A stretch of DNA of 64,000 nt, from positions 1,575,253 through 1,639,252 of the forward strand of contig CANXME010000202.1 in NCBI GenBank assembly GCA_948144175.1. The letters are read 5' to 3'. The notes below the pieces were generated by a model that saw only the letters and a program-made list of their open reading frames with translations, made no database searches and had not been told where the DNA came from. This stretch comes from Closterium sp. NIES-65. Taxonomy: Eukaryota; Streptophyta; Zygnematophyceae; Desmidiales; Closteriaceae. Below are positions 9,556 through 41,381 of the stretch, one piece after another (the stretch's first letter is position 1; each line of letters begins with the position of its first letter). The position numbers and the translations under genes are program-made.

Positions 9556-9564
9556 CCAGGATGC

Positions 9565-15500: not shown

Positions 15501-18230
15501 ACTACAACCAGGATTCATGAACCAATTACAACCAGGATGCATGAACCAATTACAACCAGGATGCATGAACCAATTACAACCAGGCTGCATGAACCAATTA
15601 CAACCAGGATGCATGAACCAATTACAACCAGGATGCATGAAACAATTACAACCAGAATGCATGAACCAATTACAACCAGGATGCATGAACCAATTACAAC
15701 CAGGATGCATGAACCAATTACAACCAGGATGCATGAACCAATTACAACCAGAATGCATGAACCAATTACAACCACGATGCATGAAACAATTACAACCAGG
15801 ATGCATGAACCAATTACAACCACGATGCATGAACCAATTACAACCACGATGCATGAACAAATTTCAACCAGAATGCATGAACCAATTACAACCAGGATGC
15901 ATGAACCAATTACAACCAGGATGCATGAACCAATTACAACCACGATGCATGAACCAATTACAACCAGGATGCATGAACCAATTACAACCAGGATGCATGA
16001 ACCAATTACAACCAGGATGCATGAACCAATTACAACCAGAATGCATGAACCAATTACAACCACGATGCATGAAACAATTACAACCAGGATGCATGAACCA
16101 ATTACAACCACGATGCATGAACCAATTACAACCACGATGCATGAACAAATTTCAACCAGAATGCATGAACCAATTACAACCAGGATGCATGAACCAATTA
16201 CAACCAGGATGCATGAACCAATTACAACCACGATGCATGAACCAATTACAACCAGGATGCATGAACCAATTACAACCAGGATGCATGAACCAATTACAAC
16301 CAGGATGCATGAACCAATTACAACCAGAATGCATGAACCAATTACAACCACGATGCATGAAACAATTACAACCAGGATGCATGAACCAATTACAACCACG
16401 ATGCATGAACCAATTACAACCACGATGCATGAACAAATTTCAACCAGAATGCATGAACCAATTACAACCAGGATGCATGAACCAATTACAACCAGGATGC
16501 ATGAACCAATTACAACCACGATGCATGAACCAATTACAACCAGGATGCATGAACCAATTACAACCAGGATGCATGAACCAATTACAACCAGAATGCATGA
16601 ACCAATTACAACCAGGATGCATGAACCAATTACAACCAGGATGCATGAACCAATTACAACCAGGATGCATGAACCAATCACAACCAGGATGCATGAAACA
16701 ATTACAACCAGAATGCATGAACCAATTACAACCAGAATGCATGAACCAATTACAACCAGGATGCATGAACCAATAACAACCAGAATGCATGAACCAATTA
16801 CAACCAGGATGCATGAACCAATTACAACCAGAATGCATGAACCAATTACAACCAGGATGCATGAACCAATTACAACCAGGATGCATGAACCAATTACAAC
16901 CAGGATGCATGAACCAATTACAACCAGAATGCATGAACCAATTACAACCAGAATGCATGAACCAATTACAACCACGATGCATGAACCAATTCTAACCAGG
17001 ATGCATGAACCAATTACAACCAGGATGCATGAAACAATTACAACCAGGATGCACGAACCAATTACAACCAGGATGCATGAACCAATTACAACCAGGATGC
17101 ATGAAACAATTACAACCAGGATGCATGAAACAATTACAACCAGAATGCATGAACCAATTACAACCAGGATGCGTGAAACAATTACAACCAGAATGCATGA
17201 ACCAATTACAACCAGGATGCGTGAAACAATTACAACCAGGATGCATGAAACAATTATAACCAGAATGCATGAACCAATTACAACCAGGATGCGTGAAACA
17301 ATTACAACCAGGATGCATGAAACAATTACAACCAGGATGCATGAACCAATTACAACCAGGATGCATGAACCAACTACAACCAGGATTCATGAACCAATTA
17401 CAACCAGGATGCATGAACCAATTACAACCAGGATGCATGAACCAATTACAACCAGGCTGCATGAACCAATTACAACCAGGATGCATGAACCAATTACAAC
17501 CAGGATGCATGAACCAATTACAACCAGGATGCGTGAAACAATTACAACCAGGATGCATGAAACAATTACAACCAGGATGCATGAACCAATTACAACCAGG
17601 ATGCATGAACCAACTACAACCAGGATTCATGAACCAATTACAACCAGGATGCATGAACCAATTACAACCAGGATGCATGAACCAATTACAACCAGGCTGC
17701 ATGAACCAATTACAACCAGGATGCATGAACCAATTACAACCAGGATGCATGAACCAATTACAACCAGAATGCATGAACCAATTACAACCAGAGTGCATGA
17801 ACCAATTACAACCAGGATGCATGAACCAATTACAACCAGGATGCATGAACCAATTACAACCAGGATGCATGAAACAATTACAACCAGGATGCACGAACCA
17901 ATTACAACCAGGATGCATGAACCAATTACAACCAGGATGCATGAAACAATTACAAGCAGGATGCATGAAACAATTACAACCAGGATGCATGAACCAATTA
18001 CAACCAGGATGCATGAAACAATTACAACCAGAATGCATGAACCAATTACAACCAGGATGCATGAACCAATTACAACCAGGATGCATGAACCAATTACAAC
18101 CAGGATGCATGAACCAATTACAACCAGAATGCATGAACCAATTACAACCACGATGCATGAAACAATTACAACCAGGATGCATGAACCAATTACAACCACG
18201 ATGCATGAACCAATTACAACCACGATGCAT
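9565..18230. repeat. Higher-order repeat, three copies (3,168 and 2,880 bp offsets)
   Basis: A long ordered set of monomer variants is present three times. The stretch 10944-12182 matches 14112-15350 (offset 3,168 bp, 132 monomers) and 16992-18230 (offset 2,880 bp, 120 monomers). The flanking stretch 10392-10934 matches 13560-14102 and 16440-16982 at the same offsets. Within them a 288-bp (12-monomer) sub-block is doubled at 15864-16148 and 16152-16436. The translated variant strings of the three long copies appear identical, which points to recent amplification. Confidence 0.88.
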
Positions 18231-20012
18231 GAACCAATTTCAACCAGAATGCATGAACCAATTACAACCAGGATGCATGAACCAATTACAACCAGGATGC
18301 ATGAACCAATTACAACCACGATGCATGAACCAATTACAACCAGGATGCATGAACCAATTACAACCAGGATGCATGAACCAATTACAACCAGAATGCATGA
18401 ACCAATTACAACCAGGATGCGTGAAACAATTACAACCAGGATGCATGAACCAATTACAACCAGGATGCATGAACCAATTACAACCACGAAGAAAGAACCA
18501 ATTACAACCAGGATGCATGAACCAATTACAACCAGGATGCAAGAACCAATTACAACCAGAATGCATGAACCAATTACAACCAGGATGCATGAACCAATTA
18601 CAACCAGGATGCATGAACCAATTACAACCAGGATGCATGAACCAATTACAACCAGGATGCATGAAACAATTACAACCAGAATGCATGAACCAATTACAAC
18701 CAGAATGCATGAACCAATTACAACCAGGATGCATGAACCAATAACAACCAGAATGCATGAACCAATTACAACCAGGATGCATGAACCAATTACAACCAGG
18801 ATGCATGAAACAATTACAACCAGAATGCATGAACCAATTACAACCAGAATGCATGAACCAATTACAACCAGGATGCATGAACCAATAACAACCAGAATGC
18901 ATGAACCAATTACAACCAGAATGCATGAACCAATTACAACCACGATGCATGAAACAATTACAACCAGGATGCATGAACCAATTACAACCACGATGCATGA
19001 ACCAATTACAACCACGATGCATGAACCAATTTCAACCAGAATGCATGAACCAATTACAACCAGGATGCATGAACCAATTACAACCAGGATGCATGAACCA
19101 ATTACAACCACGATGCATGAACCAATTACAACCAGGATGCATGAACCAATTACAACCAGGATGCATGAACCAATTACAACCAGAATGCATGAACCAATTA
19201 CAACCAGGATGCATGAACCAATTACAACCAGGATGCATGAACCAATTACAACCAGGATGCATGAACCAATTACAACCAGAATGCATGAACCAAATACAGC
19301 CACGATGCATGAAACAATTACAACCAGGATGCATGAACCAATTACAACCAGGATGCATGAACCAATTACAACCAGGATGCATGAACCAATTACAACCAGG
19401 ATGCATGAACCAATTACAACCAGGATGCATGAACCAATTACAACCAGAATGCATGAACCAATTACAACCAGAATGCATGAACCAATTACAACCACGATGC
19501 ATGAACCAATTATAACCAGGATGCATGAACCAATTACAACCAGGATGCATGAAACAATTACAACCAGGATGCACGAACCAATTACAACCAGGATGCATGA
19601 ACCAATTACAACCAGGATGCATGAAACAATTACAACCAGGATGCATGAAACAATTACAACCAGGATGCATGAACCAATTACAACCAGGATGCATGAACCA
19701 ATTACAACCAGGATGCATGAACCAATTACAACCAGAATGCATGAACCAATTACAACCACGATGCATGAAACAATTACAACCAGGATGCATGAACCAATTA
19801 CAACCACGATGCATGAACCAATTACAACCACGATGCATGAAACAATTACAACCAGGATGCATGAAACAAGTACAACCAGGATGCATGAACCAATTACAAC
19901 CAGGATGCATGAAACAATTACAAGAAGACCTACTAGCGCCCATACCAGGCCATCCTAGCAAGAAGACCTACTTGTGCTCCCTCCTGCCGCCCATGGCAGA
20001 TTGTTAAGCCGA

Positions 20013-20747
20013 CTACGCCGCCGTGCTGTCCTTGCCCGCTCTGCCCTTCTTCCCCTTCTTCCCCGAGCTGTCCTTGCCCTGCTTGCCCCTCGGCCTCTTC
20101 CTCCCCCTGTGTTCGATGTCGTACTCCATCTGCGCGTCAAGCGGCACCGCGATGCCGATCTTCCTGTGTTTCGGCCCATCCACGGGGCACATTCCCCAGA
20201 ACGCGAGGGTTTCCACCGTCGCTCGTGCGATCAGTTTGGCCTCGGCTTCAACATCCAACCCCGGATAGGCTTTGGCCAGAGCGGTGGACTCCAGCGCCGG
20301 TGCGACGTTGTGCGCAACCTCCCCAAGGGGTTGCTGCCTGCTGATCGCGGCCTCCAGCACCGCCGTCATGACCTTCTTGAACTCGGCGGCGGTAGTCTCG
20401 CTGGCGCCGACCAACATCGCCGCCGCCTTCCCTTCGCGGACGGCATCAGCCACCTGGGCGCCGTCGCCATCGACTAAGCACCACAGGGCGCAAGCGGAGG
20501 CCGACAGCGCCTGTGCGACCTTCGCCGTCTTCTGATCCGTGTCGCCCTCCATTCTCGCCGCGGATGCAGCGACCATCCCATACGCCGCGCACATGGACAC
20601 GCGATCAATCATGGCCGACATCATTGCATCCGACTTGTCGGCATCGACGGGGAACCAGATCGCGGGCAAAAGCGCATCGTGGTGCGCATTGCCTGATGTC
20701 TTGTATGCTCGATACTTCCCGAGGATATCATTGAACCTGTCACGCAA
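20013..20747 (-). CDS. Unrecognised protein with lysine/arginine-rich C-terminus, probably a partial exon
   Basis: An open frame of about 244 codons ending at TAG (20013-20015). I do not recognise a family. The first two thirds are alanine-rich and helical-looking, with segments such as ALSASACALWCLVDGDG and EAKLIARATVETLAFWG. The last about 35 residues are very basic with repeated KKGK/GKDS runs, like a nuclear-localising or nucleic-acid-binding tail. The frame has no ATG at its 5' end: an in-frame stop lies just upstream and the first codon is TTG at 20747. A GACAG sequence there could be a splice acceptor, so it may be an internal exon or gene fragment. It lies antisense to and upstream of the gag in the same spacer. 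It could be host sequence captured by a transposon or a lineage-specific retroelement ORF. Confidence 0.4.
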   Translation of the reverse strand: MRDRFNDILGKYRAYKTSGNAHHDALLPAIWFPVDADKSDAMMSAMIDRVSMCAAYGMVAASAARMEGDTDQKTAKVAQALSASACALWCLVDGDGAQVADAVREGKAAAMLVGASETTAAEFKKVMTAVLEAAISRQQPLGEVAHNVAPALESTALAKAYPGLDVEAEAKLIARATVETLAFWGMCPVDGPKHRKIGIAVPLDAQMEYDIEHRGRKRPRGKQGKDSSGKKGKKGRAGKDSTAA

Positions 20748-21240
20748 TCACACGAAACTGGTCGTTAGGAACGCCGACGTCGACATCATAGCTTGGCCGA
20801 CGTTTATCCGACTTACCGTGTCTTGGGGAGGAACGCGCCCCGTGCCCATATCACCGTCCACATCCCAGTCGGCAAGAACCGGACTTCGATTCATTGCACC
20901 CGTAACAAGGTTCCTTTTCCAAGTACCGTACCTAGTTTGATTCCAATCATTTCAGAATACAAGCTGCCCCCCCGCGTAAGCGTTCCCATGCTCCCGTACG
21001 CGTGTTGGGCACGTAGAAAGGATGGATCCAGATGTGTACTTCCACCAACTCGTCACACTTGCTATTTAGAGCCCCTTTCTTTCGGACCATGCATCTCCGC
21101 ACCCCAGGTAATCAACTTTTGATTTTTCACTCGAAGGGACTCACGTACCTTAGCACCTAGGAGCCGTTTTCCTCGCGTTCTCTCGTAAACGCGTGCAGCC
21201 ACGACTGCGCCTAGACTAAGACGAGGCGACGCCCTTTGAA
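20748..21240. other. Spacer sequence with no recognised feature
   Basis: About 490 bp between the minus-strand ORF and the gag start. I looked for an LTR end, a tRNA primer-binding site and splice-linked exons, and found nothing convincing. It may be the leader of the gag-bearing element or promoter sequence shared by two diverging frames. Confidence 0.5.
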
Positions 21241-22238
21241 ATGGCTGAACATATCGACATCACGACTCTCGCGCAGGAGCACTTGAACAATCTGTTGCGA
21301 CAAATCCGCGAGAGCGTCGAGGAAATCGCGACGTTGACGGCAGAACGCTCGTCCCTGCAAAACGACCTCACACGGGCACAATCCCAAGCACCTAGCACTC
21401 TGATTCAGCCCGCACCACAGACATCACAGCACGGAAGTGTGGGGCAACCCGCAAGCGCCGCAAGTGATGGCGTCGTCCGCCATGACGGAGACGACGACCA
21501 CGGCACGACACACCCCGACGCGACGAATGTGGCCACGACTCAGCCTCGAGTCACGATTTCGGTGCCGGCCAGCGAATTATTTCTTCCGTTGCCGATGCCG
21601 CTAAAGCCGCAGCGTCCGCCATGCTTTGACCCAAGTCAGCGGGGTGGTCCTACCGTTCAGGCGTGGCTCTTCACGTTGAACGTCTTCTTCGACGCCAACT
21701 ACGTCTCGGAGGATACGGCGAAGATTCTCTACGCCGTGTCGTTGCTGCGAGGACCCGCCATGGACTGGTGGCGCGTCATCATCACGAAGCCGGTGGACTA
21801 CGCGACTCTACCGACATGGGAAGGACAAACCGGACCCTGGGCGCCGTCGTATTTCGTGGAGGTGCCCCAGTATCGCACGTGGGACGCGTGGTGCGCAGGT
21901 CTGCGCGCTCGTTTTGAGCCAATCGCGGCTTCGATCGCGGCGCGAGAGAAGCTCCGCACTTGGCGCCAACTCGGTTCCGTCCAAGATTACACGAGCGGAT
22001 TTCTGGCGCTGTGCGAGCAAGTGGGATATATGCACGAGAGCGAGCGCATCGACCGCTACATCGGCGACCTGAAGCAGGACATCGCTCAGGAAATCCAGCT
22101 TCGCGGCGTCACCGACTTTCAAGAAATTCTCGCTATGGCGGAGAAACTTGACTTCTTTCGCCGACCGAGACCGGGGTCCTACGGAAGCAGCCATTGGGGA
22201 CATCGGCCTTGTGGGGCGAAAGAGGGCGCCATGATACG
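21241..22238 (+). pseudogene. Ty3/Gypsy-type gag (Retrotrans_gag), truncated at 3' by satellite
   Basis: About 332 gag codons from an ATG at 21241. The first 50 residues form a probable coiled coil (LNNLLRQIRESVEEIATLTA), followed by a Thr/His/Asp-rich linker and then the Gag core. Core landmarks are VQAWLFTLNVFF, LLRGPAMDWWR, the aromatic/basic stretch around AWCAGLRARFEPIAA, then REKLRTWRQLGSVQDYTSGF and RIDRYIGDLKQDIAQEIQLRG, a layout typical of Ty3/Gypsy capsid proteins. There is no zinc knuckle, protease or polymerase. The frame is cut just after FFRRPRPG..., where satellite sequence begins at 22239, and it closes on a TGA inside the first monomer. This is an orphan fragment; the rest of the element is not in the spacer. 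Confidence 0.8.
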
Positions 22239-24353
22239 TGCATGAAACAATTACAACCAGGATGCATGAAACAATTACAACCAGAATGCATGAACCAATT
22301 ACAACCAGGATGCGTGAAACAATTACAACCAGAATGCATGAACCAATTACAACCAGGATGCGTGAAACAATTACAACCAGGATGCATGAAACAATTATAA
22401 CCAGAATGCATGAACCAATTACAACCAGGATGCGTGAAACAATTACAACCAGGATGCATGAAACAATTACAACCAGGATGCATGAACCAATTACAACCAG
22501 GATGCATGAACCAACTACAACCAGGATTCATGAACCAATTACAACCAGGATGCATGAACCAATTACAACCAGGATGCATGAACCAATTACAACCAGGCTG
22601 CATGAACCAATTACAACCAGGATGCATGAACCAATTACAACCAGGATGCATGAACCAATTACAACCAGGATGCGTGAAACAATTACAACCAGGATGCATG
22701 AAACAATTACAACCAGAATGCATGAACCAATTACAACCAGGATGCATGAAACAATTACAACCAGGATGCATGAACCAATTACAACCAGGATGCATGAACC
22801 AACTACAACCAGGATTCATGAACCAATTACAACCAGGATGCATGAACCAATTACAACCAGGATGCATGAACCAATTACAACAAGGCTGCATGAACCAATT
22901 ACAACCAGGATGCATGAACCAATTACAACCAGGATGCATGAACCAATTACAGCCAGAATGCATGAACCAATTTCAACCAGAATGCATGAACCAATTACAA
23001 CCAGGATGCATGAACCAATTACAACCAGGATGCATGAACCAATTACAACCACGATGCATGAACCAATTACAACCAGGATGCATGAACCAATTACAACCAG
23101 GATGCATGAACCAATTACAACCAGAATGCATGAACCAATTACAACCAGGATGCGTGAAACAATTACAACCAGGATGCATGAACCAATTACAACCAGGATG
23201 CATGAACCAATTACAACCACGATGCATGAACCAATTACAACCACGATGCATGAACCAATTACAACCAGGATGCAAGAACCAATTACATCCAGAATGCATG
23301 AACCAATTACAACCAGGATGCATGAACCAATTACAACCAGGATGCATGAACCAATTACAACCAGAATGCATGAACCAATTACAACCAGGATGCATGAAAC
23401 AATTACAACCAGAATGCATGAACCAATTACAACCAGAATGCATGAACCAATTACAACCAGGATGCATGAACCAATAACAACCAGAATGCATGAACCAATT
23501 ACAACCAGGATGCATGAACCAATTACAACCAGGATGCATGAAACAATTACAACCAGAATGCATGAACCAATTACAACCAGAATGCATGAACCAATTACAA
23601 CCAGGATGCATGAACCAATAACAACCAGAATGCATGAACCAATTACAACCAGAATGCATGAACCAATGACAACCACGATGCATGAAACAATTACAACCAG
23701 GATGCATGAACCAATTACAACCACGATGCATGAACCAATTACAACCACGATGCATGAACCAATTTCAACCAGAATGCATGAACCAATTACAACCAGGATG
23801 CATGAACCAATTACAACCAGGATGCATGAACCAATTACAACCACGATGCATGAACCAATTACAACCAGGATGCATGAACCAATTCCAACCAGAATGCATG
23901 AACCAATTACAACCACGATGCATGAAACAATTACAACCAGGATGCATGAACCAATTACAACCACGATGCATGAACCAATTACAACCACGATGCATGAACC
24001 AATTACAACCAGGATGCATGAACCAATTACAACCAGGATGCATGAACCAATTACAACCAGGATGCATGAACCAATTACAACCAGGATGCATGAACCAATT
24101 ACAACCAGGATGCATGAACCAATTACAACCAGGATGCAAGAACCAATTACAACCAGAAAGCATGAACCAATTACAACCAGGATGCATGAACCAATTACAA
24201 CCAGGATGCATGAACCAATTACAACCAGGATGCATGAACCAATTACAACCAGGATGCATGAAACAATTACAACCAGAATGCATGAACCAATTACAACCAG
24301 AATGCATGAACCAATTACAACCAGGATGCATGAACCAATAACAACCAGAATGC

Positions 24354-27300
24354 ATGAACCAATTACAACCAGGATGCATGAACCAATTACAACCAGGATG
24401 CATGAACCAATTACAACCAGGATGCATGAACCAATTACAACCAGGATGCATGAACCAATTACAACCAGGATGCATGAACCAATTACAACCAGAATGCATG
24501 AACGAATTACAACCAGAATGCATGAACCAATTACAACCACGATGCATGAACCAATTATAACCAGGATGCATGAACCAATTACAACCAGGATGCATGAAAC
24601 AATTACAACCAGGATGCACGAACCAATTACAACCAGGATGCATGAACCAATTACAACCAGGATGCATGAAACAATTACAACCAGGATGCATGAAACAATT
24701 ACAACCAGAATGCATGAACCAATTACAACCAGGATGCGTGAAACAATTACAACCAGAATGCATGAACCAATTACAACCAGGATGCGTGAAACAATTACAA
24801 CCAGGATGCATGAAACAATTATAACCAGAATGCATGAACCAATTACAACCAGGATGCGTGAAACAATTACAACCAGGATGCATGAAACAATTACAACCAG
24901 GATGCATGAACCAATTACAACCAGGATGCATGAACCAACTACAACCAGGATTCATGAACCAATTACAACCAGGATGCATGAACCAATTACAACCAGGATG
25001 CATGAACCAATTACAACCAGGCTGCATGAACCAATTACAACCAGGATGCATGAACCAATTACAACCAGGATGCATGAACCAATTACAACCAGGATGCGTG
25101 AAACAATTACAACCAGGATGCATGAAACAATTACAACCAGAATGCATGAACCAATTACAACCAGGATGCATGAAACAATTACAACCAGGATCCATGAAAC
25201 AATTACAACCAGGATGCATGAACCAATTACAACCAGGATGCATGAACCAACTACAACCAGGATTCATGAACCAATTACAACCAGGATGCATGAACCAATT
25301 ACAACCAGGATGCATGAACCAATTACAACCAGGCTGCATGAACCAATTACAACCAGGATGCATGAACCAATTACAACCAGGATGCATGAACCAATTACAA
25401 CCAGAATGCATGAACCAATTACAACCAGAATGCATGAACCAATTACAACCAGGATGCATGAACCAATTACAACCAGGATGCATGAACCAATTACAACCAG
25501 GATGCATGAAACAATTACAACCAGGATGCACGAACCAATTACAACCAGGATGCATGAACCAATTACAACCAGGATGCATGAAACAATTACAACCAGGATG
25601 CATGAAACAATTACAACCAGGATGCATGAACCAATTACAACCAGGATGCATGAAACAATTACAACCAGAATGTATGAACCAATTACAACCAGGATGCATG
25701 AACCAATTACAACCAGGATGCATGAACCAATTACAACCAGGATGCATGAACCAATTACAACCAGAATGCATGAACCAATTACAACCAGGATGCATGAACC
25801 AATTACAACCAGGATGCATGAAACAATTACAACCAGAATGCATGAACCAATTACAACCAGAATGCATGAACCAATTACAACCAGGATGCATGAACCAATA
25901 ACAACCAGAATGCATGAACCAATTACAACCAGAATGCATGAACCAATGACAACCACGATGCATGAAACAATTACAACCAGGATGCATGAACCAATTACAA
26001 CCACGATGCATGAACCAATTACAACCACGATGCATGAACCAATTTCAACCAGAATGCATGAACCAATTACAACCAGGATGCATGAACCAATTACAACCAG
26101 GATGCATGAACCAATTACAACCACGATGCATGAACCAATTACAACCAGGATGCATGAACCAATTACAACCAGGATGCATGAACCAATTACAACCAGAATG
26201 TATGAACCAATTACAACCAGGATGCATGAACCAATTACAACCAGGATGCATGAACCAATTACAACCAGGATGCATGAACCAATTACAACCAGAATGCATG
26301 AACCAATTACAACCGCGATGCATGAAACAATTACAACCAGGATGCATGAACCAATTACAACCACGATGCATGAACCAATTACAACCACGATGCATGAACC
26401 AATTACAACCAGGATGCATGAACCAATTACAACCAGGATGCATGAACCAATTACAACCAGGATGCATGAACCAATTACAACCAGGATGCATGAACCAATT
26501 ACAACCAGGATGCATGAACCAATTACAACCAGGATGCAAGAACCAATTACAACCAGAATGCATGAAACAATTACAACCAGGATGCATGAACCAATTACAA
26601 CCAGGAAGCATGAACCAATTACAACCAGGATGCATGAACCAATTACAACCAGGATGCATGAAACAATTACAACCAGAATGCATGAACCAATTACAACCAG
26701 AATGCATGAACCAATTACAACCAGGATGCATGAACCAATAACAACCAGAATGCATGAACCAATTACAACCAGGATGCATGAACCAATTACAACCAGGATG
26801 CATGAACCAATTACAACCAGGATGCATGAACCAATTACAACCAGGATGCATGAACCAATTACAACCAGGATGCATGAACCAATTACAACCAGAATGCATG
26901 AACGAATTACAACCAGAATGCATGAACCAATTACAACCACGATGCATGAACCAATTATAACCAGGATGCATGAACCAATTACAACCAGGATGCATGAAAC
27001 AATTACAACCAGGATGCACGAACCAATTACAACCAGGATGCATGAACCAATTACAACCAGGATGCATGAAACAATTACAACCAGGATGCATGAAACAATT
27101 ACAACCAGAATGCATGAACCAATTACAACCAGGATGCGTGAAACAATTACAACCAGAATGCATGAACCAATAACAACCAGGATGCGTGAAACAATTACAA
27201 CCAGTATGCATGAAACAATTATAACCAGAATGCATGAACCAATTACAACCAGGATGCGTGAAACAATTACAACCAGGATGCATGAAACAATTACAACCAG

Positions 27301-29724
27301 GATGCATGAACCAATTACAACCAGGATGCATGAACCAATTACAACCAGGATGCGTGAAACAATTACAACCAGGATGCATGAAACAATTACAACCAGAATG
27401 CATGAACCAATTACAACCAGGATGCGTGAAACAATTACAACCAGGATCCATGAAACAATTACAACCAGGATGCATGAACCAATTACAACCAGGATGCATG
27501 AACCAATTACAACCAGGATGCATGAACCAATTACAACCAGGCTGCATGAACCAATTACAACCAGGATGCATGAACCAATTACAACCAGGATGCATGAACC
27601 AATTACAACCAGGATGCGTGAAACAATTACAACCAGGATGCATGAAACAATTACAACCAGAATGCATGAACCAATTACAACCAGGATGCGTGAAACAATT
27701 ACAACCAGGATCCATGAAACAATTACAACCAGGATGCATGAACCAATTACAACCAGGATGCATGAACCAATTACAACCAGGATGCGTGAAACAATTACAA
27801 CCAGGATGCAAGAAACAATTACAACCAGAATGCATGAACCAATTACAACCAGGATGCGTGAAACAATTACAACCAGGATCCATGAAACAATTACAACCAG
27901 GATGCATGAACCAATTACAACCAGGATGCATGAACCAACTACAACCAGGATTCATGAACCAATTACAACCAGGATGCATGAACCAATTACAACCAGGATG
28001 CATGAACCAATTACAACCAGGCTGCATGAACCAATTACAACCAGGATGCATGAACCAATTACAACCAGGATGCATGAACCAATTACAACCAGAATGCATG
28101 AACCAATTACAACCAGAATGCATGAACCAATTACAACCAGGATGCATGAACCAATTACAACCAGGATGCATGAACCAATTACAACCAGGATGCATGAAAC
28201 AATTACAACCAGGATGCACGAACCAATTACAACCAGGATGCATGAACCAATTACAACCAGGATGCATGAAACAATTACAACCAGGATGCATGAAACAATT
28301 ACAACCAGGATGCATGAACCAATTACAACCAGGATGCATGAAACAATTACAACCAGAATGTATGAACCAATTACAACCAGGATGCATGAACCAATTACAA
28401 CCAGGATGCATGAACCAATTACAACCAGGATGCATGAACCAATTACAACCAGAATGCATGAACCAATTACAACCACGATGCATGAAACAATTACAACCAG
28501 GATGCATGAACCAATTACAACCACGATGCATGAACCAATTACAACCACGATGCATGAACCAATTTCAACCAGAATGCATGAACCAATTACAACCAGGATG
28601 CATGAACCAATTACAACCAGGATTCATGAACCAATTACAACCACGATGCATGAACCAATTACAACCAGGATGCGTGAAACAATTACAACCAGGATGCATG
28701 AAACAATTACAACCAGAATGCATGAACCAATTACAACCAGGATGCATGAACCAATTACAACCAGGATGCATGAACCAATTACAACCAGGATGCGTGAAAC
28801 AATTACAACCAGGATGCATGAAACAATTACAACCAGAATGCATGAACCAATTACAACCAGGATGCGTGAAACAATTACAACCAGGATCCATGAAACAATT
28901 ACAACCAGGATGCATGAACCAATTACAACCAGGATGCATGAACCAATTACAACCAGGATGCGTGAAACAATTACAACCAGGATGCATGAAACAATTACAA
29001 CCAGAATGCATGAACCAATTACAACCAGGATGCGTGAAACAATTACAACCAGGATCCATGAAACAATTACAACCAGGATGCATGAACCAATTACAACCAG
29101 GATGCATGAACCAACTACAACCAGGATTCATGAACCAATTACAACCAGGATGCATGAACCAATTACAACCAGGATGCATGAACCAATTACAACCAGGCTG
29201 CATGAACCAATTACAACCAGGATGCATGAACCAATTACAACCAGGATGCATGAACCAATTACAACCAGAATGCATGAACCAATTACAACCAGAATGCATG
29301 AACCAATTACAACCAGGATGCATGAACCAATTACAACCAGGATGCATGAACCAATTACAACCAGGATGCATGAAACAATTACAACCAGGATGCACGAACC
29401 AATTACAACCAGGATGCATGAACCAATTACAACCAGGATGCATGAAACAATTACAACCAGGATGCATGAAACAATTACAACCAGGATGCATGAACCAATT
29501 ACAACCAGGATGCATGAAACAATTACAACCAGAATGTATGAACCAATTACAACCAGGATGCATGAACCAATTACAACCAGGATGCATGAACCAATTACAA
29601 CCAGGATGCATGAACCAATTACAACCAGAATGCATGAACCAATTACAACCACGATGCATGAAACAATTACAACCAGGATGCATGAACCAATTACAACCAC
29701 GATGCATGAACCAATTACAACCAC
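24354..29724. repeat. Higher-order duplications in right array (2,400 and 1,176 bp offsets)
   Basis: The variant string at 24354-24560 recurs at 26754-26960 (offset 2,400 bp, 100 monomers). The string at 27952-28548 recurs at 29128-29724 (offset 1,176 bp, 49 monomers). An 84-residue translated string at 24570-24824 is identical to those at 10957-11211, 14125-14379 and 17005-17259, linking this block to the left array across the spacer. Confidence 0.82.
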
Positions 29725-31649
29725 GATGCATGAACCAATTTCAACCAGAATGCATGAACCAATTACAACCAGGATGCATGAACCAATTACAACCAGGATT
29801 CATGAACCAATTACAACCACGATGCATGAACCAATTACAACCAGGATGCATGAACCAATTACAACCAGCATGCATGAACCAATTACAACCAGAATGCATG
29901 AACCAATTACAACCAGGATGCGTGAAACAATTACAACCAGGATGCATGAACCAATTACAACCAGGATGCATGAACCAATTACAACCACGATGCATGAACC
30001 AATTACAACCAGGATGCATGAACCAATTACAACCAGGATGCAAGAACCAATTACAACCAGAATGCATGAACCAATTACAGCCAGGATGCATGAACCAATT
30101 ACAACCAGGATGCATGAACCAATTACAACCAGGATGCATGAACCAATTACAACCAGGATGCATGAAACAATTACAACCAGAATGCATGAACCAATTACAA
30201 CCAGAATGCATGAACCAATTACAACCAGGATGCATGAACCAATAACAACCAGAATGCATGAACCAATTACAACCAGAATGCATGAACCAATTACAACCAG
30301 AATGCATGAACCAATTACAACCAGGATGCATGAACCAATTACAACCAGGATGCATGAACCAATTACAACCAGGATGCATGAACCAATTACAACCAGAATG
30401 CATGAACCAATTACAACCAGAATGCATGAACCAATTACAACCACGATGCATGAACCAATTATAACCAGGATGCATGAACCAATTACAACCAGGATGCATG
30501 AACCAATTACAACCAGGATGCATGAACCAATTACAACCAGGATGCATGAAACAATTACAACCAGGATGCATGAACCAATTACAACCACGATGCATGAACC
30601 AATTACAACCAGGATGCATGAAACAATTACAACCAGAATGCATGAACCAATTACAACCAGGATGCGTGAAACAATTACAACCAGGATGCATGAAACAATT
30701 ACAACCAGAATGCATGAACCAATTACAACCAGGATCCATGAAACAATTACAACCAGGATGCATGAACCAATTACAACCAGGATGCATGAACCAATTACAA
30801 CCAGAATGCATGAACCAATTACAACCAGGATGCATGAACCAATTACAACCAGAATGCATGAACCAATTACAACCAGGATGCATGAACCAATAACAACCAG
30901 AATGCATGAACCAATTACAACCAGAATGCATGAACCTATTACAACCAGAATGCATGAACCAATTACAACCAGGATGCATGAACCAATTACAACCAGGATG
31001 CATGAACCAATTACAACCAGGATGCATGAACCAATTACAACCAGGATGCATGAACCAATTACAACCAGGATGCATGAAACAATTACAACCAGAATGCATG
31101 AACCAATTACAACCAGGATGCATGAACCAATTACAACCAGGATGCATGAACCAATTACAACCAGGCTGCATGAACCAATTACAACCAGGATGCATGAACC
31201 AATTACAACCAGGATGCATGAACCAATTACAACCAGAATGCATGAACCAATTACAACCAGAATGCATGAACCAATTACAACCAGGATGCATGAACCAATT
31301 ACAACCAGGATGCATGAACCAATTACAACCAGGATGCATGAAACAATTACAACCAGGATGCACGAACCAATTACAACCAGGATGCATGAACCAATTACAA
31401 CCAGGATGCATGAAACAATTACAACCAGGATGCATGAAACAATTACAACCAGGATGCATGAACCAATCACAACCAGGATGCATGAAACAATTACAACCAG
31501 AATGCATGAACCAATTACAACCAGGATGCATGAACCAATTACAACCAGGATGCATGAACCAATTACAACCAGGATGCATGAACCAAGTACAACCACGATG
31601 CATGAAACAATTACAACCAGGATGCATGAACCAATTACAACCATGATGC

Positions 31650-34286
31650 ATGAACCAATTACAACCACGATGCATGAACCAATTTCAACCAGAATGCATG
31701 AACCAATTACAACCAGGATGCATGAACCAATTACAACCAGGATGCATGAACCAATTACAACCACGATGCATGAACCAATTACAACCAGGATGCATGAACC
31801 AATTACAACCAGGATGTATGAACCAATTACAACCAGAATGCATGAACCAATTACAACCAGGATGCGTGAAACAATTACAACCAGGATGCATGAACCAATT
31901 ACAACCAGGATGCATGAACCAATTACAACCACGATGCATGAACCAATTTCAACCAGAATGCATGAACCAATTACAACCAGGATGCATGAACCAATTACAA
32001 CCAGGATGCATGAACCAATTACAACCACGATGCATGAACCAATTACAACCAGGATGCATGAACCAATTACAACCAGGATGCATGAACCAATTACAACCAG
32101 AATGCATGAACCAATTACAACCAGGATGCGTGAAACAATTACAACCAGGATGCATGAACCAATTACAACCAGGATGCATGAACCAATTACAACCACGATG
32201 CATGAACCAATTACAACCAGGATGCATGAACCAATTACAACCAGGATGCATGAACCAATTACAACCAGAATGCATGAACCAATTACAACCAGGATGCATG
32301 AACCAATTACAACCAGGATGCATGAACCAATTACAACCAGGATGCATGAACCAATTACAACCAGGATGCATGAAACAATTACAACCAGAATGCATGAACC
32401 AATTACAACCAGAATGCATGAACCAATTACAACCAGGATGCATGAACCAATAACAACCAGAATGCATGAACCAATTACAACCAGAATGCATGAACCTATT
32501 ACAACCAGAATGCATGAACCAATTACAACCAGGATGCATGAACCAATTACAACCAGGATGCATGAACCAATTACAACCAGGATGCATGAACCAATTACAA
32601 CCAGAATGCATGAACCAATTACAACCAGAATGCATGAACCAATTACAACCACGATGCATGAACCAATTATAACCAGGATGCATGAACCAATTACAACCAG
32701 GATGCATGAACCAATTACAACCAGGATGCATGAACCAATTACAACCAGGATGCATGAACCAATTACAACCAGGATGCATGAACCAATCACAACCAGGATG
32801 CATGAAACAATTACAACCAGAATGCATGAACCAATTACAACCAGGATGCATGAACCAATTACAACCAGGATGCATGAACCAATTACAACCAGGATGCATG
32901 AACCAAGTACAACCACGATGCATGAAACAATTACAACCAGGATGCATGAACCAATTACAACCATGATGCATGAACCAATTACAACCACGATGCATGAACC
33001 AATTTCAACCAGAATGCATGAACCAATTACAACCAGGATGCATGAACCAATTACAACCAGGATGCATGAACCAATTACAACCACGATGCATGAACCAATT
33101 ACAACCAGGATGCATGAACCAATTACAACCAGGATGTATGAACCAATTACAACCAGAATGCATGAACCAATTACAACCAGGATGCGTGAAACAATTACAA
33201 CCAGGATGCATGAACCAATTACAACCAGGATGCATGAACCAATTACAACCACGATGCATGAACCAATTTCAACCAGAATGCATGAACCAATTACAACCAG
33301 GATGCATGAACCAATTACAACCAGGATGCATGAACCAATTACAACCACGATGCATGAACCAATTACAACCAGGATGCATGAACCAATTACAACCAGGATG
33401 CATGAACCAATTACAACCAGAATGCATGAACCAATTACAACCAGGATGCGTGAAACAATTACAACCAGGATGCATGAACCAATTACAACCAGGATGCATG
33501 AACCAATTACAACCACGATGCATGAACCAATTACAACCAGGATGCATGAACCAATTACAACCAGGATGCATGAACCAATTACAACCAGAATGCATGAACC
33601 AATTACAACCAGGATGCATGAACCAATTACAACCAGGATGCATGAACCAATTACAACCAGGATGCATGAACCAATTACAACCAGGATGCATGAAACAATT
33701 ACAACCAGAATGCATGAACCAATTACAACCAGAATGCATGAACCAATTACAACCAGGATGCATGAACCAATAACAACCAGAATGCATGAACCAATTACAA
33801 CCAGAATGCATGAACCTATTACAACCAGAATGCATGAACCAATTACAACCAGGATGCATGAACCAATTACAACCAGGATGCATGAACCAATTACAACCAG
33901 GATGCATGAACCAATTACAACCAGAATGCATGAACCAATTACAACCAGAATGCATGAACCAATTACAACCACGATGCATGAACCAATTATAACCAGGATG
34001 CATGAACCAATTACAACCAGGATGCATGAACCAATTACAACCAGGATGCATGAACCAATTACAACCAGGATGCATGAACCAATTACAACCAGGATGCATG
34101 AACCAATTACAACCAGGATGCATGGACCAATTACAACCAGGATGCATGAAACAATTACAACCAGGATGCATGAACCAATTACAACCAGGATGCATGAACC
34201 AATTACAACCAGGATGCATGAAACAATTACAACCAGAATGCATGAACCAATTACAACCAGGATGCATGAACCAATTACAACCAGGA
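31650..34286. repeat. Higher-order repeat of 1,320 bp (55 monomers) at the gene-proximal edge
   Basis: Variant strings at 31650-32453, 31685-31939 and 32466-32672 reappear at 32970-33773, 33005-33259 and 33786-33992, each shifted by 1,320 bp. The second copy continues to within about 300 bp of the array edge. The duplication therefore reaches the boundary with the CENP-B-like gene, showing that exchange occurs right up to the edge. Confidence 0.85.
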
Positions 34287-37200
34287 AGGGAGGAGGTGGG
34301 GTGGGTGAGGGTAGCAAGGAGTCCAACACAACGCACCTGGCGCCAACACAACGCACCTGGCGCCAACAGCGCGGGCGATGGCCCGGGAGGGGAGGGAGGG
34401 GAGGGCGCGGGCGAGGGCGCACATTGCGAGCTTCACAGCGGGCGGCACCACTGTGTGGCGCCACCGCCGCTGCCTGCCGCCCGCCCCCTCCCCTGTGCGC
34501 CCATGCGCCTGCCCCTCCCCTGTGCGCCCATGCGCCTGCCCCGCCGTGCGTGCCTCAGCCGCCCACTGCTCCGCCAGGCGCTGCAGTCGGTCCAGCGGCC
34601 CCTCCTGCTGCTCCTCTCCCCCCGCTGCCCCCCCTGCACGCCCGGCAGCAGCAGCAGCAGCAGCAGGAGCGGCAGCGGCAGCAGGGCGGTCAGAGTGCAG
34701 TGAGTGGCGCCCCTCCTCCCTCTCCTCGTCCGTCCCTCCACCGTCACTGCTCTGCCCGTCGAAGGTGTTTCCATCTGTCGTGTTACCATCAGTGGTGTTA
34801 CCATCAGTGGTGCTACCATCAATCCACATCTCTCCCCCATCTCCTCTCTCCTTCCCCTTCTTCTTCCGACCGCCCCGCTCCACCTGCTTGCCCCAGTTAC
34901 TCCCCAGCCCATGCCGCAGCAGCGCCTTGCGAGCCCAGTGGTAGCTGTACCGGAAGCCCTCCGGCACGCCCATGTGCGGCCCCACTTGCCGGGCATAGTC
35001 CAGAATGTCATCCCACCGCACCGCCTCTCGCCCGTACCGTGCCTCCATGGCGCGCACCCACGCCGCCACGGCCGCCTGCACCTGGGGGTGGGCGCCGCTG
35101 CTGTGGCGGATGCGGAAGGCGCTGTGGGCGGGCAGGGCGAGGTACACGTGGCTCTTCCTCAGGATGCGCCTCACCGCCGCCACGTCCAGCGCCGCCACTC
35201 CCGCCGCCTCCACGCCCGCCGCCGCCACTCCCCCCGCTGCCAAGCTCGCTGCCCTGCCAGCAGCAGCGGCGGTGGCAGAGGCGGCAGAGGGTGGGGCGGT
35301 GCCTTGGGGAGGGCGGGCGGCGGCGTGGAAGGCGCGGTGCAGGAGGCGGTGGATGTCTTTGGGCGCCATGTCGGGGCGGGCCGCCCTCAGCATGCAGATC
35401 ACTCGCTTCACCCGCACACTGATTGCCGCCCGCTGCTTGCCCTTCCCGCCCGGCGCCCGCTTCTCCCTCGCTGCAGCAGGCTGCCTCTCCACGTGCCGCC
35501 TACCAGCATCACCACCATCACCAACGTGGGTGTGGCCACCACTGGAGTCATCGCTTGGGGGGTCCAGGCGGAGGTCTCCTGCTGCTGCCACTGCCGCCTC
35601 CACATCCACCAACGTCCCTCCCACTGCCGCTGCACCAGCTGCTGCTGCTGCACCCCTCACCGCTGCCCCTGCTGGCGGCGCTGCCCGTCTGATTCCCTCT
35701 GCTAAATCATCCAAGTCAGACCCACCTGCTCCCTGCATGCCGGCACCCGCCTGCTCCCCGTCCACGCCAGCCTCTGCCAGTGCCAGCGCCAGCAGCTCTC
35801 GACTCGGCTGCACCGCGCGTACCGCCCTGCCTGCTGCCTTCTTCCTCGCCCGATCCCTTGCGGCGCCTCTTGCCGTGCCTGCCAGCAAGTCCACTCCTCC
35901 AGCCCATCCACCCGCCTCTGCTGCCGCCTCTCCTCCATCGCCCTCCTCGCCTGCCCCCCCACCTGCCTGTTCCCTGCCCTGCTGTGACTGCTCCTCTGAC
36001 CCGCCCTCGCCCCTCCGCCGCCGCTGCAGCCTGTCGCCCCCCTCACCCCCCTCACCCCCCTCGACCCTCTCCCCCCCCTCACCGCCCTCTAGGTCGATCA
36101 CCTCCCTGCCAGCAGTCAGTGACGTCTCCCGTCCTACCACCCTCATCCCTCCCTTCCACGCACCTCCCCTGCCACGCCCCCTTCCCACTACTCCCCGCCC
36201 TCCCCTCCCTCCCCTCCCTTTCCTCCCTCCCCTTCCTCCCCTCCCATCCCCACCCCTTCCATCCTCCTCATCCTCGTCCTCATCATCCTCCTCACTGCCC
36301 TCCTCATCCCCCTCTTCCCCCTCCTCCCCCTCCCCCTCCTCCTCACCACCATGCGTGCGTGCCACCAGGATCTGGGCGCCAAAGATCTCATCAGCCAGCT
36401 CCACCAGCGACGGCTCCGCACTGCCCGCAGCGGCGGCGGCGGCAGCAGCAGGGTCGTCATTGAAGTACGCCTCCCTCTCCTCCTCCACATGCCGCTTTGA
36501 GAACCCCCACCGCTCCTGGAAGCGACACGCCCACCCAATGCTGTACCTGCAAGGGCAGGGCGAGGGTAGGCTCACTGAGAAGTGTTGAGACGCGGCAGTA
36601 AGGGGAGAGGTAAGGGCCAGATGGAGCAGAGGAAGCAGCAAGCGAAGGACACATGGCACAGTACCCCGCCTCATGGCACAGTACCCCGCCTCATGGCACA
36701 GTACCCCGCCTCATGGCACAGTACCCCGCCTCATGGCACAGTACCCCACCTCCCCTGCCATCAACCCTGGCAGCACCTGAAGGAGGGCGACACCCCAAAC
36801 GACGGGCCCAGCTCGCGGCCCTTGGCGCAGATCTGCTGCAGCTGCACCTTGGTGGCGCCCGGGCCGCCCTTCATGTCCCTCAGCCACGCCACGAGCGCCT
36901 CCTCCAGCGCCATGCTCTCGGGCGCGCGCACCCGCTTGCTGCTGCGCTGCGCCAAGGTGGAGCTCCAGTGGGGCGCCTTGGTGAGGATGCGGCGCACGTG
37001 CGAGGGGATGAGGCGCATGTGCGGGTACTTGGCGCGGCACACACGCATGATCCCCCCCACCGTGATGCCCGGGCGCACACGCCGCAGCTCACAGATGTCG
37101 CGCTTCACACTCACGTCCACGTGCCGCCGCCGCCCGCTCCTGCTCCCTCCCCCGCCTCCCCCGCCTCCCCTGCCTCCCCCGCCGTGCCGCCTACTGCCGC

Positions 37201-38842
37201 CGCCGCCGCCTGCCTCTTCCTGCCCACCTGCGCCCCCACCTGCTGCGCCCCCCCCTGCTGCGCCCCCACCTGGTGCTGTGGGTGCTGCTGCGGTGGGCAC
37301 CTGAGAAGCATCCGGTGTGTGCAGGGCAGCTGCTGCGCTCGCTGGTGCTGCAGCGGGCGGGTGGTGAGGCAGCATGAGATCCATGCCGCCTCCTGCCGCA
37401 CCGCCTGCTGCCCCCTCAGCCCCACCCATGGAAGCAGCACCCCCAACAGCCACCCCGCCAGCACCGACACCTGCACGTGCAGCAGCAGTGGCGGCAGACG
37501 CTTGTCTGAGGGCCTCACGAGCAGCAGCCAGGCCGGCAGCATAGCCCAGCTCATAGTCCTCCCCCTCCCCTCCCTCTCCCCCCCACTCCTCCCCTTCCCC
37601 TCCCCCCCACTCCTCCCCTCCCTCTCCTCCCCACTCCCCTCCGTCTCCTTCCCAGTCCTCCTCTGCCGCTCCGACACCCTCCCCATCGTACCACTCCCCC
37701 CAAGCCCCATCCCCCCCACCGTCCACACCCACACCCACGTCGGTGCGCCCAAGCTCCTCCCCACCGCCGCCAAGCTGCCATGCGTGCTGCCGTCCACCCT
37801 CCGCCCACCCGCCTGCCGCACCACGAAACTGCCCCTCGCCGCCCCTTCCCTCCACCTGCTCTTGCTGCTCATACTGACGTTGCTGCTGCTGCTGCTGCTG
37901 CTGCTGCCATTGCTCCTCCTCCTCCGGCCGCTGCTGCTGCTGCTGCTGCAGGTGGGGCAGCAGCTGGTCACGGTGCATGCGCCCTGCACCCACCATCTGC
38001 TGCCTTGCGTTTGACTCCTCGCCCCCCCCATCCCACCGCTCCCCTTCCTCCTCGCCATCACCCCCCCATGCCATCTCCACTCTCCTACCCCTCGCTACAC
38101 CTCCGTACTCCTCCCAATCCACACGCCCCTGCTGCCCTTCCGCCGCTCCCAATGCCTCTCCACCACTCACCCGCCCATCGAGGTACCCCATTCCCCCGTC
38201 CGTGTCCCACCCCCTGCCGGCGTCCCCCCCTCTCATCCGCGCATTCCCACGCGCATGCGCGCCCGTCCCCGTCCAATCCTGTCCGCGCGCCACACCTGCG
38301 CCCCTCCCTCTGCGCGCCACCAACTCCCGCCCGCGACTGCCGTCCGCTTGCCCCGTTCCACCCCTCGTCCTCCCCCTCCCCGCGCCCTCGCTTACGCGTA
38401 CCGTACTCCCGCCTGCTCCGCCATCCGCGCCTCTCCCCCTACCTCCCCTGCGGCGGGATACGCGCCCCTCCGCGCCTCCCCCTGTCCATCCCTCCGCTGC
38501 ATTCGCTGCTCCCCCTCCTCCACCCACCGCTCCCACTCCTCCGCCCGTCCCTCCGCCCTCCCGCGCTGCCACTGCCGCTCCGCGCACGCTTGCGCCGACC
38601 TCCGCGCCCTCCCCCACGCCCCATCCCGTTCCTCTAGCCGCGATTCTTCCTGCTTCCCCCCCATCCGCATAGCCGCCCTCCGCGCCTCCCCCAATCGCCC
38701 ACCACGCCCCTGCAGTCCCCTCCGCCACCGCGCCCACCGCCTCCCCCCTCGCACTGCCTCTCCTCCCTCGTGCGCCTCCACCGCTTCTACCCCCCCTCGC
38801 CCCTTTTCTACCCCTCCCCCTTCCCCCTCCGCCTGACTCCAT
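34275..38842 (-). CDS. Protein with two CENP-B/Tigger-type helix-turn-helix modules (two exons)
   Basis: Exon 1 is 38842-36777 and exon 2 is 36546-34275, separated by a 230-bp intron with GT donor (AG|GTGCTG) and AG acceptor (TTGCAG|GTACAG). Splicing joins ...SPSFR to YSIGWACRFQERWGF and gives about 1,445 residues. The ATG at 38842 is the first after an in-frame TGA. Module 1 (about residues 574-710) has a first helix-turn-helix (VSVKRDICELRRVRPGITVG) and a CENPB-type second one ending in the W/RF/R-G signature. Module 2 (about 1062-1235) repeats the plan: ISVRVKRVICMLRAARP, then AVAAWVRAMEARYG and FRYSYHWARKALLRHG. The rest is Gly/Arg, Gln, acidic and Ala low complexity. CENP-B-type domains bind DNA in CENP-B and pogo/Tigger transposases. 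No DDE transposase domain is visible. The frame runs into the satellite, whose reverse strand supplies the TAA, so the original C-terminus may be lost. Domain call by eye; fold-level confidence is good, function inferred. Confidence 0.72.
34287..34400. other. Junction between satellite and gene, with a 20-bp direct repeat
   Basis: Purine-rich GGGAGGAGGTGGGGTGGGTGAGGG follows the last monomer (describing the plus strand only in part). It is followed by two copies of AACACAACGCACCTGGCGCC at about 34324-34363. On the minus strand it is still inside the open frame of the CENP-B-like gene, translated as repeated GARCV/APGALCW residues that resemble junk rather than domain. This may be the scar of the array meeting the gene. 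Confidence 0.5.
36547..36776 (-). other. Intron of the CENP-B-like gene
   Basis: Bounded by GT (36776-36775) and AG (36548-36547) on the minus strand. Removing it restores the conserved second helix-turn-helix across the junction with the arginine codon split AG|G. Without splicing exon 1 reads CCQG and stops, and exon 2 would begin with unrelated residues, so domain continuity supports the intron. Confidence 0.75.
36653..36752. repeat. 20-bp minisatellite, five copies, inside the intron
   Basis: Five tandem copies of CATGGCACAGTACCCCGCCT, the last with one change (CACCT). It lies between the donor and the middle of the 230-bp intron and so makes up nearly half of it. Confidence 0.93.
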
Positions 38843-38893
38843 CCGGTAGCGGAGGGAGAGGCGGCGCCACGAAGCGACGCGAGGCGGTCAGCC

Positions 38894-39041
38894 ACTGGCG
38901 GGGCTACGCGCGGGGAAGGGACTGCCGCACTGGCGGGGCTACGCGCGGGGAAGGGACTGCCGCACTGGCGGGGCTACGCGCGGGGAAGGGACTGCCGCAC
39001 TGGCGGGACTACGCGCGGGGAAGGGACTGCCGCACTGGCGG
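38894..39041. repeat. 35-bp tandem repeat upstream of the CENP-B-like gene
   Basis: Four full copies plus a partial one of a 35-bp unit starting ACTGGCGGGGCTACGCGC, at 38894, 38929, 38964, 38999 and 39034. It lies 52 bp upstream of the assigned start codon, so it could fall in the 5' leader or promoter of the gene. It is GC-rich with CpG-rich CGCGCGGGG cores. Confidence 0.9.
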
Positions 39042-40220: not shown

Positions 40221-40335
40221 CTCCTTTTCATTCCTGAAGGTGAGCCACGTAGGATTTATTCGAGATCCCGCAGAGGTCGGTGCAGTGCTACAACTTCTGA
40301 CGTGACAACTTCTTGGTCAAGAAGTCTGCTGCCAT

Positions 40336-41285: not shown

Positions 41286-41381
41286 TCACAAAATACAAAA
41301 CCTGTGTTTGCAGGGACCACCAAGTCAGAAGCCTGTAATCACCCTGAAATCAGGGTAATTACCCTGATATCGTCAGCCCTG

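What the first reader, a model, noticed from the sequence alone, without database searches (positions are those of the whole stretch)
34275..38842. Duplicated CENP-B-type DNA-binding gene directly beside a large satellite
Seen: a spliced minus-strand frame encodes two separate modules, each with a first helix-turn-helix and a CENPB-type second one (FRYSIGWACRFQERWG and FRYSYHWARKALLRHG are the matching cores). The second core of module 1 is restored only by splicing across the 230-bp intron. Known: CENP-B and pogo/Tigger transposases carry this pair of domains, and CENP-B binds centromeric satellite. Inference: a protein with two such modules could bridge sites in repetitive DNA, and this gene abuts a 24-bp satellite of more than 32 kb. 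Physical proximity alone does not prove it binds that array.
Basis: partly seen in the sequence, partly recalled or inferred. Interest (0 to 1): 0.78.

Follow-up and report, generated by a model that had tools for sequence, protein, structure and literature searches.

The report
Satellite array inside a DNA-binding gene
A huge block of 24-letter repeats that looked like a neighbour of a DNA-binding gene in fact sits inside one of that gene's introns, was found as an array nowhere else in the assembled genome, and has about 1,400 copies in one copy of the gene, about 70 in another and a single one in two sister genes, so it may show how such repeats are born.

Summary
The minus-strand gene is real: the 230-bp intron restores module 1 in frame, and both modules are CENP-B/pogo-type paired helix-turn-helices. 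But the gene does not end at 34275. Exon 2 ends at 34357 inside a third module. On the far side of the satellite, outside the window, the other half of that module resumes in phase (contig C202:1573151, downwards) and, as a fragment, scores 25.6 bits for PF03221 (cutoff 22.2). The satellite therefore lies inside intron 2 (36,457 bp, 1,411 units) of a predicted 2,270-aa, three-module gene.

Whole-genome pattern counts place every array copy in this intron: 415 of 415 exact 33-mers and 1,462 of 1,462 32-mers with up to 3 mismatches lie in C202 or its collinear second copy on C106, where the intron is 2,016 bp with 72 units. Two paralogs have 367- and 523-bp introns with one unit.

This is a private, hypervariable intronic VNTR, probably grown from a 24-bp seed, not a dispersed satellite for the protein to organise; the satellite-binding inference loses its support. 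Closest known case: the human CACNA1C intronic 30-mer. Transcription and splicing are untested.

The parts
36777..38842 (-). Exon 1 (predicted, from ATG at 38842): Gly/Ala/Arg-rich N-terminus, then most of module 1. Start codon and absence of upstream exons not verified.
36547..36776 (-). Intron 1, 230 bp, GT-AG; holds a 20-bp minisatellite at 36652-36752 (about 5 copies here, about 10 in the C106 copy).
   Evidence: same position and phase in L041
34357..36546 (-). Exon 2: end of module 1, all of module 2, first part of module 3; ends at CAG|GTGCGT.
36777..37120 (-). Module 1, exon 1 part (VDVSVKRDIC...GVSPSF); continues in exon 2 at 36546-36468 (RYSIGWACRFQERWGF).
34875..35423 (-). Module 2 (ISVRVKR...FRYSYHWARKALLRHG), with an Ala-rich insert in its first HTH.
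34357..34455 (-). Module 3, first part (VVPPAVKLAMCALARALPSLPSRAIARAVGAR); the rest is exon 3 at C202:1573151-1570595, outside the window.
1..34356 (-). Window part of intron 2; the whole intron is C202:1573152-1609608, 36,457 bp.
1..19920 (.). 24-bp array, left block (continues to about 1.9 kb left of the window).
19921..22253 (.). 2,333-bp insert in the array with a retrotransposon gag fragment (21241-22245 +, PF03732 E=1.9e-7).
22254..34286 (.). 24-bp array, right block, ending about 70 bp from the splice donor.
34323..34368 (-). 20-bp duplication that copies the splice donor of intron 2 (2.3 copies); a 26-bp relative varies in number in the paralogs.

Best explanation
One host gene of a photosynthetic eukaryote encodes a protein with three CENP-B/pogo-type DNA-binding modules and no recognisable transposase domain. 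Its intron 2, which splits the first helix-turn-helix of module 3, contains the whole 24-bp satellite. Shown by sequence: exon 3 lies on the far side, in phase, and is found beside exons 1-2 in all four copies of the gene; arrays of the repeat were found only in this intron; it has 1,411 units in the window copy, 72 in a second, collinear copy and one unit in each of two paralogs. Inferred: a single 24-bp intronic sequence was duplicated and then grew by slippage and by duplication of multi-unit blocks, separately or with heavy reshuffling in the two copies, and is tolerated because it is spliced out. The CENP-B-like nature of the host protein is then incidental to the array.
For: Exon 3 resumes in the same phase and gives PF03221 at 25.6 bits, E=1.2e-5, as a fragment. 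Exon 3 has 6 matches in the genome: the same four contigs as exons 1-2, same strand and order, plus two weak family hits. A stretch spanning intron 2 scores 18.3 bits only in the spliced protein. Array private: 407 + 8 = 415 exact hits and 1,399 + 63 = 1,462 hits at up to 3 mismatches, 0 reverse. Intron 2 lengths 36,457, 2,016, 367 and 523 bp; seed unit in a paralog matches 22 of 24 consensus bases between the same flanks. Exact repeats of up to 105 units (2,520 bp) within the array. dN/dS 0.38 (exon 2) and 0.48 (exon 3) against C729. Intron 1 shows the same behaviour in small.
Against: No RNA: neither intron is proven to be spliced. Direction (one unit to many) is inferred; a collapsed array would also leave one unit. 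C202 and C106 could be recent duplicates rather than haplotypes; the collinear flank pieces are themselves dispersed repeats, judged by being the best matches. Modules 1 and 2 are each below the Pfam cutoff, and module 3 falls to 21.7 bits when the whole exon 3 is scanned. The array length rests on the assembly. The search patterns exceed one unit, so single dispersed units would be missed.
Confidence: 0.82

Rival explanations
1. One reading: a CENP-B-like protein encoded beside a satellite that it binds and bridges.
For: The module family includes CENP-B and Abp1, and several modules in one chain could bridge sites.
Against: The array is found only in this gene's intron, is about 20-fold smaller in the second copy and a single unit in paralogs; no CENP-B-box core in the window's part of it.
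Confidence: 0.04
2. The long array breaks the C202 copy: the 36-kb intron is not efficiently removed, transcripts end or stop in its first part, and this copy makes only a two-module protein.
For: An in-frame stop lies about 80 nt into the intron in C202 and about 40 nt in C106.
Against: Exon 3 of C202 keeps an open 851-aa frame and shows dN/dS 0.48 against C729, but the array may be too young for decay to show; C202 against C106 in exon 3 has only 8 changes (ratio 0.59).
Confidence: 0.2
3. The array is old and the paralogs collapsed to one unit.
For: Recombination between repeats leaves one unit, so the single unit is not by itself proof of an ancestral state.
Against: The single unit differs from the consensus at 2 bases; both introns of the paralogs lack the arrays of the other pair, so two collapses would be needed.
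Confidence: 0.15
4. The length of the C202 array is an assembly artefact.
For: Exact blocks of up to 2,520 bp recur, and all units are in one register.
Against: 67 unit types, only 7 shared with C106, a retroelement insert inside, and the expected exons on both sides. Location in the intron is also supported by the small C106 array.
Confidence: 0.08

Closest known systems
TRACT, the 30-bp VNTR in an intron of human CACNA1C (PMC13131567: abstract, Introduction and one Results section read)
   Same: Short unit, hundreds to thousands of copies in one intron, short and long alleles with different unit composition.
   Different: There: many human alleles and expression data. Here: one genome of another lineage, about 20-fold difference between two copies, single-unit paralogs in the same genome, longer array than most, and the intron splits a DNA-binding domain.
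Satellite-filled gigantic introns of Drosophila Y genes kl-3 and kl-5 (PMC6508621: outline and abstract)
   Same: Satellite DNA inside an intron of a protein-coding gene.
   Different: Megabases there, 36 kb here; here the repeat is private to one intron and varies between copies; transcription not tested.
CENP-B (1HLV) and fission yeast Abp1 (1IUF) DNA-binding domains
   Same: Paired HTH module: profile of 11 modules hits 1IUF at 9.4e-8 and 1HLV at 2.5e-7.
   Different: Three modules in one chain; no DDE_1 or CENP-B dimerisation domain among Pfam hits.
pogo/Tigger-type transposases of the same genome (e.g. L001, C1929)
   Same: Homologous module; L001 carries PF03221 (46.1 bits) and aligns with the window modules.
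   Different: L001 has DDE_1; the window gene does not.
Other multi-module genes of this genome (C1052/C2001/C2159, C665/C1654)
   Same: Several such modules in one frame or neighbouring frames; intron-1 position shared by L041.
   Different: About 30-42% identity in the modules; the place homologous to intron 2 is uninterrupted in L038.

Membership tests
CENP-B/Abp1/pogo paired-HTH DNA-binding domain | Second HTH (PF03221, HTH_Tnp_Tc5) | tested here: met
   Module 3 fragment 25.6 bits, above cutoff 22.2, 21.7 in the whole exon; modules 1 and 2 14.5 and 15.2, below; all three found by an outside profile.
CENP-B/Abp1/pogo paired-HTH DNA-binding domain | First HTH before it | tested here: inconclusive
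   No Pfam hit for the first HTH of any window module; whole-module profile hits cover it for module 1 and match CENP-B and Abp1.
CENP-B | DDE_1-derived central part and C-terminal dimerisation domain | tested here: not met
   Neither among Pfam hits of exons 1, 2 and 3 at E up to 0.1.
CENP-B | Binds CENP-B boxes in centromeric satellite | not testable with these tools
   Needs binding data; no box core in the window's part of the array (motif recalled).
pogo/Tigger transposase | DDE catalytic domain | tested here: not met
   Absent in the gene, present in L001.
Dispersed (for example centromeric) satellite | Arrays at several loci | tested here: not met
   415 of 415 and 1,462 of 1,462 pattern hits lie in C202 and C106 intron 2. 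Unassembled arrays are not excluded.
Intronic VNTR (minisatellite) | Array within an intron at one locus | tested here: met
Intronic VNTR (minisatellite) | Copy number differs between copies of the gene | tested here: met
   1,411, 72, 1 and 1 units; whether C202 and C106 are alleles is inferred from flanks.
Gigantic satellite intron (Drosophila Y type) | Transcribed through and spliced by a special programme | not testable with these tools
   No RNA data here.

The most novel reading that the evidence does not exclude
Intron 2 is a copy-specific length switch. Read-through meets a stop about 80 nt (C202) or about 40 nt (C106) into the intron, giving a two-module protein; splicing across it gives three modules. 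Growth of the array from 1 to 72 to 1,411 units would shift the balance, so repeat number would set how many DNA-binding modules this regulator carries, possibly with the modules recognising their own intron.
Probability: 0.08. Interest if true: 0.85.

Novelty: new variant of a known kind. Interest (0 to 1): 0.6.

Why it matters
How satellite DNA is born is hard to study because the first steps are usually erased. Here one unit, 72 units and 1,411 units sit at the same intron position of homologous gene copies in one genome, with flanks intact and no other arrays found to confuse the picture. Seed, early and late stages can be compared directly, and it becomes testable whether a 36-kb repeat that splits a DNA-recognition domain affects splicing. 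It is also a warning against reading function into a gene 'next to' a satellite. Separately, proteins with several CENP-B-type modules in one chain form a small family in this genome.

Tried and rejected
Relatives in viral contigs and genome contigs: 60 and 19 pattern matches, 0 confirmed; genome contigs is prokaryotic. NCBIfam gave nothing relevant. PDB searches with module 1 alone, or with modules 1 and 2, gave only chance hits; with same-genome relatives added, Abp1 and CENP-B. Rfam and tRNA scans of the window were empty.

'The satellite ends the gene': rejected after fetching the left flank. 'A genome-wide satellite': rejected by the counts. Lack of AG in the sense-strand consensus as a splicing adaptation: 41 AG in 33,864 bp, but by my own arithmetic a random 24-mer of this composition lacks AG about one time in three, so not claimed. 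The long frame MHEPITTR through the array: 24 bp is 8 codons, so an open frame comes easily; not treated as coding. One search landed in a dispersed repeat and said nothing on synteny. Naming the organism was not achieved: PF00504 has 146 matches (lower bound); after two very long fused LHC chains (9vfj), the best PDB hits of one of these proteins are 7xqp and 8htu (recalled as moss photosystem I), ahead of other plant and green-algal chains, which suggests a streptophyte.

Points against, told in full: other dN/dS values were 0.28 (C202-C106, exon 2), 0.59 (same pair, exon 3, 8 changes), and 0.50 and 0.65 (C106-C729). The exon-2 pieces of C106, C729 and C2400 there also held intron 1 and the end of exon 1, so stops counted in them (4, 3, 3) and the C106-C729 and C729-C2400 exon-2 values include non-coding sequence; one search lists module 2 in open frames of 790, 836 and 888 aa without stops. 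In one search, 9 of 26 exon-2 indels are not multiples of 3; they compensate in clusters. Match of the module-3 start to module 1 or 2 alone is modest (0.6% and 0.9% of 2,000 shuffles reach it).
Full report
WHAT IS THERE. The minus-strand gene is real in its modular part. Exon 1 (38842-36777) and exon 2 (from 36546) are joined across a 230-bp GT-AG intron (36776-36547), in frame, restoring FRYSIGWACRFQERWG. Modules 1 and 2 align with each other (BLASTP 2e-11, 35% over 91 aa). For each the best Pfam hit is PF03221 (HTH_Tnp_Tc5), below its cutoff: 14.5 bits, E=0.035 and 15.2 bits, E=0.021, cutoff 22.2. The stop at 34275 is not the end of the gene. From about 34455 a third module begins (VVPPAVKLAMCALARALPSLPSRAIARAVGAR). 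It breaks off at CAG|GTGCGT (34357/34356), and the satellite starts about 70 bp further on. The ATG at 38842 and the lack of upstream exons are not verified; the N-terminal 570 residues are low-complexity.

THE FAR SIDE. The window's assembly is held: 874 Mb, 2,400 contigs, window = C202:1575253-1639252. I fetched 160 kb to the left and 40 kb to the right. The array ends about 1.9 kb left of the window (C202 about 1573326). Beyond it, on the minus strand, the missing half of module 3 follows an acceptor GGCAG|GTACGG in the same phase: RYGLRLTNVSLPAVLLREDDWRQL...VSVRAVQEYARRLAPLVGVGRGFTCSVGWVQQFMQRWGF. As a 136-aa fragment it scores PF03221 25.6 bits, E=1.2e-5, above the cutoff; within the whole 851-aa exon 3 it scores 21.7, just under. 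Intron 2 is 36,457 bp, C202:1573152-1609608 (one search printed the acceptor side one base off). The predicted protein has 2,270 aa. Exon 3 has 6 matches in the genome: beside exons 1-2, in the same order and strand, in all four copies of the gene (C202, C106, C729, C2400), and weakly in two other family genes.

FAMILY. One single-module protein of this genome, L001, carries PF03221 (46.1 bits) and DDE_1, so it is a pogo-type transposase, and it resembles human CENP-B 1HLV (E=2.1e-5). A profile of five modules from other proteins of this genome (L001, L004, L045, L046, L047; only L001 tested for DDE_1) was searched against 264 kb of six-frame translation, the spliced protein and 400 shuffled copies. 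Its six best rows are the spliced protein (modules 1, 2 and 3; iE 4.8e-15, 1.1e-7, 0.0055) and its unspliced pieces; the next rows have E of 1.4 or more, and no shuffled copy is among the 14 rows printed. Splicing intron 1 lifts module 1 from 44.2 to 53.7 bits. With three multi-module relatives added, a stretch spanning intron 2 (aa 1393-1473, 18.3 bits) appears only in the spliced protein. A profile of 11 modules, the window's three included, hits Abp1 (1IUF, 9.4e-8) and CENP-B (1HLV, 2.5e-7). Pfam finds neither DDE_1 nor a CENP-B dimerisation domain in the gene at E up to 0.1. It belongs to the paired-HTH domain family; it is neither CENP-B nor a transposase. The genome has at least 149 PF03221 matches (150 of 579 candidates scored) and other multi-module genes (C1052/C2001/C2159 and C665/C1654). 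In L041 an intron sits at the position and phase of intron 1, and the place homologous to intron 2 is uninterrupted in L038.

CODING AND CONSTRAINT. Against paralog C729, exon 2 has dS 0.26 and dN 0.10 (ratio 0.38, 693 codons) and exon 3 has dS 0.20 and dN 0.10 (ratio 0.48, 216 codons); other values are in Tried and rejected. Differences are commonest at third positions (exon 2: 0.089, 0.081, 0.154; exon 3: 0.115, 0.083, 0.143). Exon 3 has no indels over the part compared; 17 of 26 exon-2 indels are multiples of three and the other 9 compensate in clusters. This is moderate purifying selection, the exon beyond the satellite included.

THE ARRAY. 1,411 units of 24 bp, 67 types, mean 0.74 differences from the consensus, and no break of register except one 2,333-bp insert at 19921-22253 that holds a gag fragment (PF03732, E=1.9e-7). 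Blocks of up to 105 consecutive units recur exactly (2,520 bp, lag 3,168 bp), so segmental duplication shaped it. It is private: an exact 33-mer has 415 hits in the assembly, 407 in this array and 8 in the C106 copy, none reverse. A 32-mer at up to 3 mismatches has 1,462 hits, 1,399 + 63, none reverse. These patterns are longer than one unit, so isolated units elsewhere would be missed, and unassembled DNA is not covered.

THE SERIES. Copy C106 is 99% identical in module 2. Its 5' flank matches in three pieces at 94-96%, better than any other place for those pieces, with about 1 kb extra in C202. On the 3' side a dispersed-repeat piece has its best other match (93%, against 87% or less elsewhere) on C106 in the same orientation, 51.6 kb from exon 3 there and 36.5 kb in C202. 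C106 is therefore most likely the other haplotype. Its intron 2 is 2,016 bp with 72 units in register, 22 types. The two arrays share 7 types and no common run longer than 4 units. Paralogs C729 and C2400 (82% identity in module 2) have introns of 367 and 523 bp holding one unit, 22 of 24 bases as the consensus, between the same flanks; they differ from each other in the number of copies of a 26-bp donor-spanning repeat. Intron 1 repeats the pattern in small: a 20-bp unit about 5-fold in C202 (230-bp intron) and about 10-fold in C106 (330 bp), and, read by eye, not arrayed in the paralogs. The simplest reading is local birth of minisatellites from single intronic sequences, one of which ran away. 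The direction is inferred; collapse in the paralogs is possible.

WHAT THIS MEANS FOR THE FINDING. The gene is near the satellite because the satellite is part of the gene. Since no other array was found and the other copies have a small array or one unit, nothing suggests that the protein organises it. No CENP-B-box core (motif recalled) is found in the window's part of the array at up to 1 mismatch. What is striking is the one, 72 and 1,411 series, and a 36-kb repeat intron that splits a DNA-recognition domain. If intron 2 is retained, translation stops about 80 nt into it in C202 and about 40 nt in C106, leaving a two-module protein. A switch between two- and three-module forms is conceivable and untested.

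KNOWN RELATIVES OF THE PHENOMENON. The closest is the CACNA1C 30-bp intronic VNTR, 3-30+ kb, with short and long alleles of different unit composition (PMC13131567; abstract, Introduction and the section on perfect repeat tracts read). Satellite-filled gigantic introns are known from Drosophila Y genes (PMC6508621; outline and abstract). The genome is that of a photosynthetic eukaryote, probably a streptophyte (the source organisms of the best PDB entries are recalled).

Noticed in passing
L041 and L038 (C1052:43393-48349), L033/L034 (C665/C1654), L035-L037 (C1052/C2001/C2159): Further genes with several CENP-B-type modules in one long frame or in neighbouring frames, in two or three near-identical copies each; a small family of multi-module proteins.
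   Followed up: partly
L001 (C1929:273654-276833) and similar loci: Pogo/Tigger-type transposases (PF03221 plus DDE_1) whose module is homologous to those of the window gene; likely source of the family.
   Followed up: partly
window 39500-41500 (C202:1614752-1616752): A stretch of about 1 kb is present in C202 and missing from the collinear place in C106 (93% match on C1697): probably a copy-specific insertion just upstream of the gene.
   Followed up: partly
window 19921-22253: Insert in the array with a truncated Ty3-type gag frame (21241-22245 +) and a minus-strand frame (20013-20747) without a convincing Pfam hit.
   Followed up: partly
window 42000-61000: Several Copia-like polyprotein fragments with internal GC-rich minisatellites (for example 47554-48023, 51778-52079).
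   Followed up: no
window 61455-61703 and 62971-63219: The same open frame occurs twice 1,516 bp apart, so a direct repeat lies at the right end of the window.
   Followed up: no
window 38893-39042: A 35-bp minisatellite (4.3 copies) lies just upstream of the predicted start codon.
   Followed up: no
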